Shown in pieces: positions 25,497 to 54,311 of a stretch of 64,000 nt of DNA. The stretch is from Clostridiales bacterium. Its GTDB lineage: Bacteria > Bacillota > Clostridia > Oscillospirales > Oscillospiraceae. A program made the translations under genes and the position numbers. The first letter of the stretch is position 1; each line of letters starts with the position of its first letter. Under the pieces are notes generated by a model. It was not told the origin of the DNA and made no database searches. It saw only the letters and a list, made by a program, of their open reading frames with translations. The stretch spans positions 1-64,000 of the forward strand of contig JAJQEV010000118.1 of NCBI GenBank assembly GCA_021201475.1. The letters run 5' to 3'.

Positions 25497-25642
25497 AGTG
25501 AAAGCTCCTTGTACTCAGGTAAGGTGGAACGGGGCGTGGCGAGGAATGGCGAAGGAGGTCGGGCGGAACCAATTCCCGTTGCAAAATTGCACCGGATGTC
25601 TAATAATATCGGATAAAAGTTGCAAAAAATTGAAATAACCCG

Positions 25643-25726: not shown

Positions 25727-26479
25727 TTGGACACGATGAAAATTTTGATTGCCGATGCCGACGAGGCGTTTCGCGCAGCTTTGACAGACCTGATCCGGCG
25801 GGAGCCGGATATGGAGGTGGTTCTCCAGACGGCGAACGGGGAGGAAGCGGCGGACTACCTGCTGCATCACGAGGTGGACGTGCTGCTGACGGACACTGTG
25901 CTGGCCCGGATGGACGGGATGGAACTGCTGACCCGCATTGCCCGCAGCGAGGGGCGGAAGCCCATCATTCTGGTGCTGTCCGGCTTCCTCCGAGGCAACG
26001 TGGTACGGCAGGCGGCCGGCTTGGGGGCGGACTACTTTATGATGAAGCCCTGCCGCCCGGCGGCGGTGCTGGAGCGGGTGCGCCAAATCGCGGACAAGGC
26101 CCCGGAAACAGCCCGGGACGCCACGGGGCTGGAGACCCGCGTCACCGCCATCATCCACGAAATCGGGGTACCCGCCCACATCAAGGGGTATCAGTACCTA
26201 CGGGAAGCCATCCTCATCGCAGTGGACGATATGGACGTGATCAACGCAGTGACGAAGGTGCTTTACCCGGAGGTGGCCCGGCGCTACGGCACCACCGCCA
26301 GCCGGGTGGAGCGGGCCATCCGCCACGCCATCGAGGTGGCCTGGGACAGAGGAGACATCGAGACGCTGCAAAAATACTTCGGCTACACCGTCTCCAACGC
26401 AAAGGGGAAGCCCACCAACAGCGAGTTTATCGCCATGATCGCCGACCGGCTCCAACTCCAGCGGCGGAGCAACGGCTGA
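25727..26479 (+). CDS. spo0A: Sporulation master regulator Spo0A
   Basis: 250 residues: receiver (1-~120) plus the Spo0A-specific DNA-binding domain (~145-250). Receiver residues are intact: acidic pair in IADADEA, acceptor Asp in VLLTDTVL, Ser in VLSGF, Lys in MMKPCRP. The output domain has [19 protein letters not shown], the recognition region [15 protein letters not shown] and the terminal [17 protein letters not shown] choose the TTG at 25727 since AAAGGAG is nine bases upstream; the ATG at 25736 is too far. Monocistronic, with a terminator. Contrast the degenerate paralogue at 53583-54311. Confidence 0.96.
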
Positions 26480-50651: not shown

Positions 50652-51077
50652 ATGGAAACTGAAATCCTTTCCGTCAAGCTGCGGGAGCTGGATGAGACGG
50701 TGGGCCAACTGCACAGCCGTATCGAGCGGAGCCAGGCGGTCAGCCGCAGCAAACGCCAGGCAGAGCTGGAGGCGGTTCGCCAGGACTGCGCGGAGGCGGA
50801 ACAAACGCTCCGCAGCCGGATGCGGTTCAGCCGCTCCGGGTTCGTCCGGGAGCTGACGGAAGCCTGCGATGAGCTGGAGCGTGCGGCGAAGCACGCCTAC
50901 GGGCGGGTTTGCACCACCCGATCCGAGGCGGAAGGGGAGCATCCCAACGCCGAGGAGAGTATTTTGCTGGCAGAGTATGCGTTGGATTTTGCCATGCAGG
51001 CGGCTAACCGTGCGCTTGCGCTGTCCCTGGAGGCCATGAACCGGCAGCCGGAACCATCAGAACGGGAGGAAACCTAA
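50652..51077 (+). CDS. Coiled-coil protein translationally coupled to ftsH
   Basis: 141-residue soluble, highly charged protein, predicted almost wholly helical: KLRELDETVGQLHSRIERSQ and AELEAVRQDCAEAEQTLRSR show heptad spacing, and AEYALDFAMQAANRALALSL an amphipathic helix. No known family. Its stop overlaps the start of ftsH by one base (TAATG), so it is co-translated with the protease and could be an adaptor or substrate regulator; that is a guess. Start at 50652 behind GAAGGGGG. Confidence 0.7.
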   Translation: METEILSVKLRELDETVGQLHSRIERSQAVSRSKRQAELEAVRQDCAEAEQTLRSRMRFSRSGFVRELTEACDELERAAKHAYGRVCTTRSEAEGEHPNAEESILLAEYALDFAMQAANRALALSLEAMNRQPEPSEREET

Positions 51078-52891
51078 TGAAAGAAGTCAAATCACCGAGA
51101 CGGCCCTTGATCTACTACTACGGCATCGTGCTGCTGACCCTGCTGATTTTCAACCTGATTGTCGCGCCCCTGCTCTCCTCCTCCCAAATCGTGGAGGTGG
51201 ACTACGGCACCTTTATGAGCATGATTGAAAATCAGGAAATCGGCTCTGTAGAAATCACAGACACCCAAATCTACTTCACCGATACGGATGACACCGTCGT
51301 CTACACCACCGGCCTGATGCAGGACGCCACCCTGACCGAGCGGCTGTACGAGGCCGGGGCCACCTTCACCTCGGAAATTGAGGAGACCACCTCGCCCATT
51401 CTCACCATCCTCCTCTCCGTGGTGCTGCCGCTGGTCATCTTCGTGGCTCTGGGGCAGTACATGAGCAAGAAGCTGACCGAGCAGATGGGGAAGAACTCCA
51501 TGTCCTTCGGCATGGGCAAGAGCAATGCCAAGGTCTATGTGGAATCCACGGCGGGCATCCGCTTTGACGATGTGGCCGGGGAGGAGGAGGCCAAGGAGAG
51601 CCTGGCCGAAATCGTGGACTATCTGCACAACCCGGACAAGTACACCCAGGTGGGCGCGTCCATGCCCAAGGGCCTGCTGTTGGTGGGCCCTCCGGGCACC
51701 GGCAAAACCATGCTGGCCAAAGCAGTGGCAGGGGAGGCTAACGTGCCCTTCTTCTCCATCTCCGGCTCGGAGTTTGTGGAGATGTTCGTGGGCATGGGTG
51801 CCTCCAAGGTGCGGGACCTGTTTAAGCAGGCCAAGGAGAAGGCCCCCTGCATCGTTTTCATTGACGAGATTGACGCCATCGGCAAGAAGCGGGACAGCCA
51901 GCTGGGCGGCAATGACGAGCGGGAGCAGACCCTGAACCAGCTGCTGACGGAGATGGACGGCTTCGAGGGCAACAACGGCGTCATCATCCTGGCCGCCACC
52001 AACCGGCCGGAGTCCCTTGACCCGGCGCTGACCCGCCCCGGCCGGTTTGACCGTCGGGTGCCGGTGGAGCTACCCGATTTGCAGGGCCGTGAGGCGATTT
52101 TGAAGGTTCACGCCAGGAAAATCAAGGCCGCCGAGGACGTGGACTACCACACCATCGCACGGATGGCCTCCGGTGCCTCCGGCGCAGAGCTTGCCAACAT
52201 CGTGAACGAGGCGGCCCTCCGCGCCGTCCGGAATAACCGCTCCGTCGTCACCCAGGCCGACCTGGAGGAGAGCATCGAGGTGGTCATCGCGGGCTACCAG
52301 AAGAAGAACGCCGTCCTCTCCGACCAGGAGAAGAAGGTGGTGGCCTACCACGAAATCGGCCACGCCCTGGTGGCGGCGCTGCAAACCCACTCCGCCCCGG
52401 TGCAGAAAATCACCATCATCCCCAGAACCTCCGGCGCGCTGGGCTACACCATGCAGGTGGAGCAGGGGGACAAGTACCTCCTGACGAAGCAGGAACTGGA
52501 GAACAAAATCGCCACCTACACCGGCGGCCGGGCCGCAGAGGAGCTGGTGTTTGGTGAAATCACTACCGGCGCCTCCAATGATATCGAGCAGGCCACCAAG
52601 CTGGCCAGGGCTATGATCACCCGCTACGGCATGAGCGAGGATTTTGACATGGTGGCCCTGGAGACGGTCAACAACCAGTACCTGGGCGGCGACACCTCCC
52701 TGGCCTGCTCTGCGGACACCCAGAAAGAAATCGACCGCAAGGTGGTCGACCTCGTGCGGACGCAGCACGAGAAGGCGTTGGGCATCCTGGCGGAGCATCG
52801 GGAGAAGCTGGACGAGCTGTCCCTGTACCTGTACGAGAAGGAAACCATCACAGGGGAAGAGTTCATGGAAATTCTGAACCGGGAAGCGTAA
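51077..52891 (+). CDS. ftsH: ATP-dependent zinc metalloprotease FtsH (second copy)
   Basis: 604 residues, shorter than the copy at 35449-37515 because it lacks the acidic C-terminal tail. Two membrane segments ([20 protein letters not shown] and [16 protein letters not shown]) flank the outer domain. AAA motifs: [41 protein letters not shown]; zinc site HEIGH. The Walker A is canonical, unlike the GSPGTGKT of the first copy. Middle gene of a coiled-coil/ftsH/DUF308 unit. Confidence 0.96.
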
Positions 52892-52906: not shown

Positions 52907-53446
52907 ATGAGAAGACGCTCCAGTTTTGGTTGGATGGAATTGGCCATCGGCATTCTGCTCATCGCCCTGGGCATTTTGGCCGTTTGCTGGCCCCAGGGCG
53001 TGTTAACGGGCATTGTGATGATTTACGGCGTCATCGCCGTGCTGACGGGCATTGTGGACATCGTGTTCTATGTCCGGTTTGACCGGTTTACCGGCTTCGG
53101 GCCGATCGTGTCCCTGATTTCCGGCGTGCTCAGCGTCATGGTGGGCTTCATGCTGCTGGTATATCCCGATGTGGGCACCCGGGCGCTGTCCATCCTGTTC
53201 CCCCTGTGGTTCCTGGCCCACTGCTTTTCCCGCCTGGCTCACCTGCCCTTTATCCGGCGCGAGGCCGGGCCAGGCTATTACTATTTCATGCTGGTTGCCA
53301 ACATCATCGGAATCATGCTGGCGGTGCTGATGCTGTTCCAGCCGGTGTTCAGCTACTTCTCCCTGGGGCTCATCATCGGCGTTTACCTGATTCTACTGGG
53401 CATTGACAGCATTGTGCTGGGGGTCAGCGGCGTGGGGGCAGGCTGA
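52907..53446 (+). CDS. HdeD-like membrane protein (DUF308)
   Basis: 179 residues with six membrane segments arranged as repeated hairpins: MELAIGILLIALGILAVCWP, GVIAVLTGIVDIVFYV, SLISGVLSVMVGFMLLVYPD, LSILFPLWFLAHC, ANIIGIMLAVLMLFQP and LGLIIGVYLILLGIDSI. The repeated GIxLIxxGIxxxxxP pattern is that of HdeD/DUF308 proteins, linked to acid or envelope stress in other bacteria. 15 bases after ftsH, GGGAGG before the ATG. Likely part of the same envelope-maintenance unit. Confidence 0.88.
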   Translation: MRRRSSFGWMELAIGILLIALGILAVCWPQGVLTGIVMIYGVIAVLTGIVDIVFYVRFDRFTGFGPIVSLISGVLSVMVGFMLLVYPDVGTRALSILFPLWFLAHCFSRLAHLPFIRREAGPGYYYFMLVANIIGIMLAVLMLFQPVFSYFSLGLIIGVYLILLGIDSIVLGVSGVGAG

Positions 53447-53460
53447 CCCGACGCAGAGCG

Positions 53461-53488
53461 TGTCGGACGGATATCGAATCGTGTCGAA
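53461..53488 (+). promoter_or_regulatory. Three phased Spo0A-box-like sites
   Basis: TGTCGGA at 53461, TATCGAA at 53472 and TGTCGAA at 53482. The last is the exact Spo0A box core; each of the others differs by one base. They are 11 and 10 bases apart, on the same helix face, and end 30 bases before the -35 box of the Spo0A-like gene. Confidence 0.6.
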
Positions 53489-53517: not shown

Positions 53518-53546
53518 TTGAATCTTTTCCTTTTGTATGATATTAT
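53518..53546 (+). promoter_or_regulatory. Promoter of the Spo0A-like gene
   Basis: TTGAAT (53518-53523), 17-base spacer, TATTAT (53541-53546). Confidence 0.8.
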
Positions 53547-53582
53547 TTCTATAAGAATCATATAAAAGGAGCTGGGGCATTT

Positions 53583-54311
53583 ATGATCAAGGTGATTATC
53601 GCCGCCGCAGACAGCGTCCAACGCAGGGCGCTGAAGGAGACGCTGCTGCAAAACGATTCCCTGACGCTTTCCGCAGTGACGGACTGCGGCAGCGAGCTTT
53701 TGGCGCTGCTGGACGGCCAGCCGCCGGATATCCTGCTGGTGGGGCAGGAGCTTGCGGATCGCTCCGGCCTGCAGATGCTCTCCGAGCTGCGGGGGACAGC
53801 CTTTCTCCAGCCGGACGTGGTCTTTGCCTTTTCCGGCGGCGGCACAGGCAGCTTTCAAATCCTGCTGAACGCCATGGAGTGCCCGCCCGACAGGGAGTCG
53901 CACCTTGCCGCCCCCGGCCTGGCCCTGTACCAGGCGGACCAGATGGGGCCAGTGCCTTATCGGCGGCTGGTCGCCGACTTCCTGTTTGCCCTAGGGATTC
54001 CGGCCAACGTGAAGGGGTACCGCTACCTGATGTGGTCGCTGGAGCAAATCAGGCAGGACCCGGAGTTGCTAAACCTGTTGACCAAGGCGCTATACCCCAT
54101 GGTGGGCCGTCAGTTCCGGACGAAGGACGGCGCAGCGGAGCGGGCCATGCGGCACACCATCGGCACCGCCTTCTGCCAGGGCGACCAGACGGTTTGGGCC
54201 TCCTACTTCCCCTCCTGCGTCCACGGGAGGAAGCCTACCAACGGGGAGTTCCTGGCGGGGGCCCACGAAGCGCTACGGCAGATGGAGGGGCGGGCAAACG
54301 CATCTGATTAA
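53583..54311 (+). CDS. Spo0A paralogue with a degenerate receiver domain
   Basis: 242 residues. The C-terminal ~105 residues are clearly the Spo0A output domain (FALGIPANVKGYRYLMWSL, LLTKALYPMVGRQF, AAERAMRHTIGTAF, GRKPTNGEFLAGAHEALRQM), aligned without gaps to the Spo0A at 25727-26479. The receiver-like N-terminus has lost its chemistry: the acidic pair reads AAADS, the acceptor position reads ILLVGQ (Gly for Asp), and no switch Lys-Pro is found. It should bind Spo0A-type DNA sites without phosphorylation control. AAAGGAG precedes the ATG. Three box-like sites upstream suggest control by Spo0A or by itself. Confidence 0.85.
   Translation: MIKVIIAAADSVQRRALKETLLQNDSLTLSAVTDCGSELLALLDGQPPDILLVGQELADRSGLQMLSELRGTAFLQPDVVFAFSGGGTGSFQILLNAMECPPDRESHLAAPGLALYQADQMGPVPYRRLVADFLFALGIPANVKGYRYLMWSLEQIRQDPELLNLLTKALYPMVGRQFRTKDGAAERAMRHTIGTAFCQGDQTVWASYFPSCVHGRKPTNGEFLAGAHEALRQMEGRANASD

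What the first reader, a model, noticed from the sequence alone, without database searches (positions are those of the whole stretch)
53583..54311. Spo0A paralogue that has lost phosphorylation chemistry but kept the DNA-binding domain
Seen: the C-terminal ~105 residues align gap-free with the genuine Spo0A encoded at 25727-26479, while the receiver part has AAADS for the acidic pair, Gly for the acceptor Asp (ILLVGQ) and no switch Lys-Pro. Known: Spo0A normally needs phosphorylation to dimerise on its boxes. Inferred: this protein may be a constitutive activator or a competitor that sets a threshold for sporulation entry, an arrangement I do not know to be described.
Basis: partly seen in the sequence, partly recalled or inferred. 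Interest (0 to 1): 0.75.

Follow-up and report, generated by a model that had tools for sequence, protein, structure and literature searches.

The report
Spo0A paralogue unable to be phosphorylated
Seven related gut bacteria carry, besides the normal master switch for spore formation (Spo0A), a second copy that has lost its phosphate on-switch but kept the DNA-reading residues, and its gene sits behind a Spo0A-type control site, so it could be a built-in brake or bypass on sporulation that can be tested.

Summary
The gene is real and intact, not decaying. The 242-aa protein (PAR) is a divergent Spo0A descendant. Its C-terminus matches the DNA-bound Spo0A structure (Z 18.5) and its N-terminus best matches the Spo0A receiver (Z 11.0). 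One detail is wrong: the C-terminal alignment to Spo0A is not gap-free (2-residue deletion; 42 of 118 columns identical).

Seven species, one sub-clade of the genus, keep PAR at the same locus; all lack the Asp, none is frameshifted, and dN/dS is 0.22 (DNA-binding domain) and 0.43 (receiver remnant). New here: all seven promoters carry tandem 0A boxes (TATCGAA-N3-TGTCGAA in the window) above a σA-type promoter, the only exact such tandem in the 2.69-Mb genome. PAR keeps the base-reading residues but has replaced much of the presumed activation patch. I favour a Spo0A-induced, phosphorylation-blind competitor at 0A boxes; that is inference.

Not unprecedented: receiver-less phage Spo0A, a second Spo0A in C. 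thermocellum and Asp-less receivers are known. Several other secondary Spo0A-like proteins in this family also lack the Asp.

The parts
53583..54311 (+). PAR, the Spo0A-derived pseudo-response regulator, whole CDS (242 aa, stop included)
53583..53843 (+). Receiver remnant, residues 1-87 (β1-α1-β2-α2-β3-α3-β4), Ala-Ala acidic pair
   Evidence: AF2 model; best receiver match is Spo0A receiver 1dz3, Z 11.0
53742..53744 (+). Gly54 codon at the phospho-acceptor position (Asp56 in the B. subtilis Spo0A numbering used here)
   Evidence: Gly in 7 of 7 orthologues
53844..53951 (+). Residues 88-123, where α4-β5-α5 and the linker would be; mostly pLDDT under 50, highest dN/dS
53952..54290 (+). Spo0A_C DNA-binding domain, residues 124-236, with recognition residues E186 R187 R190 H191
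53472..53478 (+). 0A box 1, TATCGAA
   Evidence: ATCGAA conserved in 7 of 7 orthologues
53482..53488 (+). 0A box 2, TGTCGAA (consensus), 3 bp after box 1
   Evidence: exact in 6 of 7 orthologues, TGTCGAG in G010; the tandem is the only exact WRTCGAANNNTGTCGAA in the genome
53518..53523 (+). σA-type -35, TTGAAT
   Evidence: conserved in 7 of 7
53541..53546 (+). σA-type -10, TATTAT, 17 bp after the -35
   Evidence: spacing conserved in 7 of 7
53565..53571 (+). Ribosome-binding site AAAGGAG
25727..26479 (+). Genuine Spo0A (comparison protein)
   Evidence: TIGR02875 275.6 bits
25597..25613 (+). Degenerate tandem 0A-like boxes TGTCTAA-N3-TATCGGA upstream of genuine spo0A
   Evidence: TGTCTAA conserved in all seven species, second box varies
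52907..53446 (+). DUF308 membrane-protein gene directly upstream, part of the conserved synteny
51077..52891 (+). ftsH, part of the conserved synteny
   Evidence: next to PAR wherever the contig reaches that far

Best explanation
PAR is a chromosomal, vertically inherited Spo0A descendant that can no longer be a phosphorylation switch. SHOWN by sequence: loss of acidic pair, acceptor Asp and switch Lys; no confident α4-β5-α5 third; retained Spo0A_C fold and base-reading residues; purifying selection; a conserved tandem 0A-box site above a σA-type promoter. INFERRED: Spo0A~P (and perhaps PAR itself) binds those boxes and controls PAR. Once made, PAR binds 0A-type sites without phosphorylation, because the receiver that normally masks the effector is broken. 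Because the presumed activation patch (B. subtilis 227-240) has been rewritten while the base-reading residues have not, PAR occupies Spo0A sites without recruiting RNA polymerase normally, and so acts as a Spo0A-dependent negative-feedback competitor that raises the threshold or limits the duration of the Spo0A response.
For: Conserved Ala-Ala, Gly and no Lys in 7 species. Spo0A_C fold at Z 18.5 to Spo0A-DNA complex 1lq1. E213, R214 and R217 kept in 7 of 7, H218 in 6 of 7. Tandem 0A boxes and a 17-bp-spaced σA-type promoter conserved in 7 of 7. The tandem is the only exact match in 2.69 Mb, with about 0.03 expected by composition. dN/dS 0.22 in the DNA-binding domain and 0.43 in the receiver remnant, no frameshift. 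Residues invariant in 48 genuine Spo0As are replaced in the presumed activation patch (for example L232W, G237P). The isolated Spo0A DNA-binding domain binds targets without phosphorylation, and the TGTCGAA core matters for binding (PMC3485338). SpoIVA is present in the genome, so the sporulation pathway is likely there.
Against: No expression, binding or phenotype data exist. Other helix-turn-helix residues invariant in genuine Spo0A are also changed (T208K, S210G, R211A, V212A), so DNA specificity may have shifted. The boxes lie about 64-80 bp upstream of the predicted start, farther than boxes that overlap the -35; whether Spo0A acts there is unknown. At up to 2 mismatches the tandem pattern is not enriched genome-wide over its control, so a broad shared regulon cannot be shown. 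That residues 227-240 form the σA-contact patch is from my own knowledge of B. subtilis genetics; the paper search for it found nothing.
Confidence: 0.4

Rival explanations
1. PAR is a dedicated constitutive activator or regulator of a small target set (for example its own promoter), parallel to Spo0A, with altered DNA specificity and a re-tuned σA contact.
For: The rewritten activation patch is fixed, not random, in 7 species (V204, W205, F209, P210, C212). Helix-turn-helix residues outside the base-reading set are changed in a fixed way (K, D, A-A).
Against: Base-reading residues E213/R214/R217 are kept, and the promoter carries consensus 0A boxes, pointing to shared rather than separate DNA sites.
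Confidence: 0.25
2. PAR works as a heteromeric partner of Spo0A: its receiver remnant or C-domain pairs with Spo0A on tandem boxes and tunes cooperativity, rather than acting alone.
For: The receiver remnant, though inactive, is still under purifying selection (ω about 0.43) and still folds as a receiver half.
Against: The α4-β5-α5 part, a common receiver dimerisation face, has no confident fold. No co-complex was modelled.
Confidence: 0.15
3. PAR's receiver remnant is a ligand- or protein-sensing pseudo-receiver that switches the DNA-binding domain by a non-phosphate signal.
For: Ligand control is known for at least one other pseudo-receiver (c-di-GMP and ShkA, PMC7010744, abstract). The remnant is maintained rather than lost outright.
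Against: No conserved pocket was identified; the remnant evolves about twice as fast as the DNA-binding domain and is truncated.
Confidence: 0.1
4. PAR is a decaying duplicate of no function.
For: It evolves faster than genuine Spo0A (DNA-binding domain ω 0.22 against 0.09; receiver 0.43 against 0.15).
Against: Seven species, no frameshift or stop, ω well below 1, near-invariant recognition residues, conserved promoter with 0A boxes, conserved synteny.
Confidence: 0.05

Closest known systems
Spo0A (TIGR02875), genuine master regulator of sporulation
   Same: Same two-domain origin; the Spo0A_C domain and the receiver remnant both match Spo0A best among solved structures
   Different: No phospho-acceptor, acidic pair or Lys; receiver truncated; presumed activation patch changed; scores 89 against a cut-off of 200
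Receiver-less Spo0A homologues of gut phages (PMC10294663)
   Same: Spo0A DNA-binding domain freed from phosphorylation control, suggested to act on host sporulation
   Different: PAR is chromosomal with conserved synteny in seven species, keeps a receiver half, and has a 0A-box promoter; a scan of viral contigs with the PAR alignment found no relative
Second Spo0A of Clostridium thermocellum, Clo1313_0637 (PMC4890492)
   Same: Second chromosomal Spo0A homologue
   Different: It is 49% identical to B. subtilis Spo0A; PAR is about 30% identical to its own genome's Spo0A. I did not examine that protein's active site
Aspartate-less / pseudo-receiver response regulators such as ChxR (PMC4395418, PMC12632262, PMC3960148)
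   Same: Response regulator lacking the Asp; ChxR binds DNA without phosphorylation
   Different: Different output-domain family; PAR also lacks a confident last third of the receiver
Other secondary Spo0A-like proteins of the same family (L069-L072, L078, L080, L082, L188, L225, L228)
   Same: Spo0A_C plus a receiver without the acceptor Asp
   Different: They carry Glu, Asn, Ser or Thr instead of Gly, most keep the Lys, and PAR forms its own fully supported clade

Membership tests
Spo0A_C domain (PF08769) | Match above the Pfam cut-off of 25 bits | tested here: met
   82.2 bits, E=3e-23; 1lq1 Z 18.5
Spo0A equivalog (TIGR02875) | Score at or above 200 bits | tested here: not met
   89.4 bits
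Spo0A equivalog (TIGR02875) | Phospho-acceptor Asp and switch Lys | tested here: not met
   Gly in 7 of 7, no Lys; Asp56 and Lys108 are present in 48 of 48 genuine Spo0As
Spo0A equivalog (TIGR02875) | Base-reading recognition helix residues (E213, R214, R217) | tested here: met
   All kept in 7 of 7; which residues read bases is recalled from the 1lq1 structure, not recomputed
Spo0A equivalog (TIGR02875) | Binds 0A boxes | not testable with these tools
   Needs EMSA or ChIP
Response-regulator receiver (PF00072) | Match above the cut-off of 30.2 bits | tested here: not met
   24.6 bits, though the fold of residues 1-87 matches Spo0A receiver 1dz3 at Z 11.0
Aspartate-less / pseudo-receiver proteins | Receiver homology without the acceptor Asp | tested here: met
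Phage receiver-less Spo0A | Carried by a phage and lacking a receiver | tested here: not met
   Conserved chromosomal synteny, receiver half retained, no viral-contig relative
Spo0A regulon member (as a target gene) | 0A box(es) at a σA promoter | tested here: met
   Tandem boxes conserved in 7 of 7; actual regulation not tested

The most novel reading that the evidence does not exclude
PAR is a Spo0A-induced, phosphorylation-blind decoy that competes with Spo0A~P at 0A boxes: a chromosomal negative-feedback brake on sporulation made from the master regulator itself, and one of several independently arisen Asp-less Spo0A paralogues that rewire sporulation in this family of gut bacteria.
Probability: 0.3. 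Interest if true: 0.75.

Novelty: new variant of a known kind. Interest (0 to 1): 0.52.

Why it matters
Spo0A~P level is the textbook decision variable for spore formation, and how gut Clostridia set that threshold is largely unknown. A chromosomal Spo0A copy that cannot be phosphorylated, with a conserved Spo0A-type control site in its own promoter, makes a feedback hypothesis directly testable in cloned promoters. The wider pattern, loss of the phospho-acceptor in several secondary Spo0A-like proteins, suggests the DNA-binding half is reused more often than the single-Spo0A picture implies, and that automatic annotation as 'Spo0A' can mislead.

Tried and rejected
Decay: rejected, seven intact orthologues with dN/dS well below 1. 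Phage origin of this gene: the viral-contig scan with the PAR alignment found nothing; 13 faecal phage-labelled records match P0001 at 24-41% identity, but they are unannotated. Recent duplication of this genome's own Spo0A: the tree puts PAR on a long separate branch outside the genus Spo0A clade, exact place unresolved. Broad 0A-box regulon: the pattern with up to 2 mismatches gave fewer hits than its reversed control (27 against 54), and the 1-mismatch sites I inspected did not point to known sporulation genes. spoIIAA-like upstream regions: no 0A box seen by eye. PAR after ftsH-DUF308 in other genus members: no Spo0A_C found in the two loci checked, G005 and G018, but those stretches end about 150-250 bp past DUF308, so undecided. 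Literature on constitutive Spo0A alleles and on the σA-contact residues was not found in the library.

Full report
OBSERVATION. The ORF 53583-54311 (+) is open and starts with ATG. Pfam Spo0A_C matches residues 130-229 at 82 bits; the receiver model reaches only 24.6 bits, below its cut-off of 30.2. The genome holds two Spo0A_C genes, this one and the genuine spo0A at 25727-26479. PAR and Spo0A are about 30% identical overall, and 42 of 118 aligned columns are identical in the DNA-binding part, with a 2-residue deletion before KPTN.

ACTIVE SITE. Against 48 genuine Spo0As of the family, which keep Asp10 (47 of 48), Asp56 (48) and Lys108 (48), the seven PAR proteins have Ala, Gly and no Lys. 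The AlphaFold model (mean pLDDT 74.5) gives β1-α1-β2-α2-β3-α3-β4 for residues 1-87, a stretch of pLDDT under 50 (77-91 and 95-123) where α4-β5-α5 should be, and a confident DNA-binding domain. VIA-align gives Z 18.5 (rmsd 1.5 over 110) to Spo0A-DNA complex 1lq1 for the C-domain and Z 11.0 (rmsd 2.1 over 84) to Spo0A receiver 1dz3 for the N-part, tied with other receivers within about 1. The absence of α4-β5-α5 rests on a low-confidence stretch of a model built from 11 sequences, so it is likely, not proven.

DISTRIBUTION. Close orthologues (75-93% identical) exist in six other species of the genus. They sit in the same order tetR, small coiled-coil gene, ftsH, DUF308, PAR, then aroD and a shikimate-kinase gene on the other strand, as far as each contig reaches. 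These seven form one sub-clade by aroD identity (85-95% against about 50% in the rest of the genus). The search of 300 family genomes found no close orthologue outside the genus. The named-genome scan gave six PAR loci, all 'Clostridiales bacterium' MAGs. All 26 good-quality genomes of the genus carry SpoIVA, so the clade is sporulation-competent on paper.

SELECTION. No frameshift or stop. Nei-Gojobori dN/dS averages 0.22 in the DNA-binding domain, 0.43 in the receiver remnant and 0.73 in the linker. Comparators: aroD 0.26, DUF308 0.22, ftsH 0.07; genuine Spo0A 0.09 (DNA-binding domain) and 0.15 (receiver) in the same species. PAR is constrained, but less than Spo0A.

PROMOTER. Between DUF308 and PAR all seven genomes keep [T/C]ATCGAA-N3-TGTCGA[A/G], then TTGAAT-17 bp-TA(T/A)(T/A/G)AT and AAAGGAG (coordinates). 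TGTCGAA is the core of the Spo0A box, also for C. difficile (PMC3485338). WRTCGAANNNTGTCGAA has one exact match in the 2.69-Mb genome, this one; about 0.03 are expected by base composition. The pattern was written after seeing the site, so cross-species conservation is the stronger argument. The genuine spo0A promoter has a weaker version, TGTCTAA-N3-TATCGGA, whose first box is conserved in the seven, and spoIIGA has an upstream TGTCGGA in six of seven.

DNA-BINDING DOMAIN. PAR keeps E213, R214 and R217 in 7 of 7 and H218 in 6 of 7, but changes T208, S210, R211 and V212, and the 227-240 stretch (L232W, G237P and others), all invariant or nearly so in genuine Spo0A, and A257H. From my knowledge of B. 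subtilis work, 227-240 is the σA-contact region; the library search did not return a source. This pattern suggests DNA reading kept and activation altered.

CONTEXT IN THE FAMILY. Among 87 secondary Spo0A_C proteins gathered, 49 are near stand-alone domains, 12 have a 40-110 aa extension, and 26 have a receiver-sized or longer N-part. The sample was taken on purpose from genomes rich in copies. Of the receiver-bearing ones several lack the acceptor Asp, with Glu, Asn, Ser or Thr instead. PAR is a separate, fully supported clade, but branches are long and the number of independent losses is not settled.

PRIOR ART. Gut phages carry Spo0A without the receiver (PMC10294663). C. thermocellum has a second Spo0A (PMC4890492). 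Asp-less receivers are well known (PMC4395418, PMC12632262). No paper found describes a chromosomal, clade-conserved Spo0A paralogue without the phospho-acceptor and with a 0A-box promoter, but the library lacks most subscription papers.

CONCLUSION. Best explanation: a Spo0A-regulated, phosphorylation-blind competitor at 0A sites (0.4). Rivals: separate activator (0.25), heteromeric partner (0.15), signal-sensing pseudo-receiver (0.1), decay (0.05).

Noticed in passing
window 25736-26479 and 48 genuine Spo0As of the family: Genuine Spo0A in this family mostly has a D-A acidic pair instead of D-D (Ala in 38 of 48, Thr in 6), and Ser in place of the switch Thr in 48 of 48.
   Followed up: partly
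L069, L070, L071, L072, L078, L080, L082, L188, L225, L228: Secondary Spo0A-like response regulators whose acceptor Asp is Glu, Asn, Ser or Thr; L080 and L082 keep the full E-R-R-H recognition set. The Glu cases could mimic phosphorylation.
   Followed up: partly
L172, L177, L180, L183, L191 and others (49 of 87 sampled): Stand-alone Spo0A_C proteins of about 100-140 aa are common in copy-rich genomes of the family, up to nine Spo0A_C matches in G108. Mobile-element origin not checked.
   Followed up: no
L196:1672-2841, L203:388-1380, L212:167-1411: Spo0A_C at the end of longer proteins of 330-414 aa with an N-part of unknown kind.
   Followed up: no
L229:1027-1794 and L229:8121-8888: Two nearly identical complete Spo0A paralogues about 7 kb apart in G062, besides the better-scoring copy.
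   Followed up: no
window 25597-25613: Degenerate tandem 0A-like boxes upstream of spo0A, first box conserved in seven species: possible autoregulation.
   Followed up: partly
window 22235 (-): The only other exact TGTCGAA in the 64-kb window.
   Followed up: no
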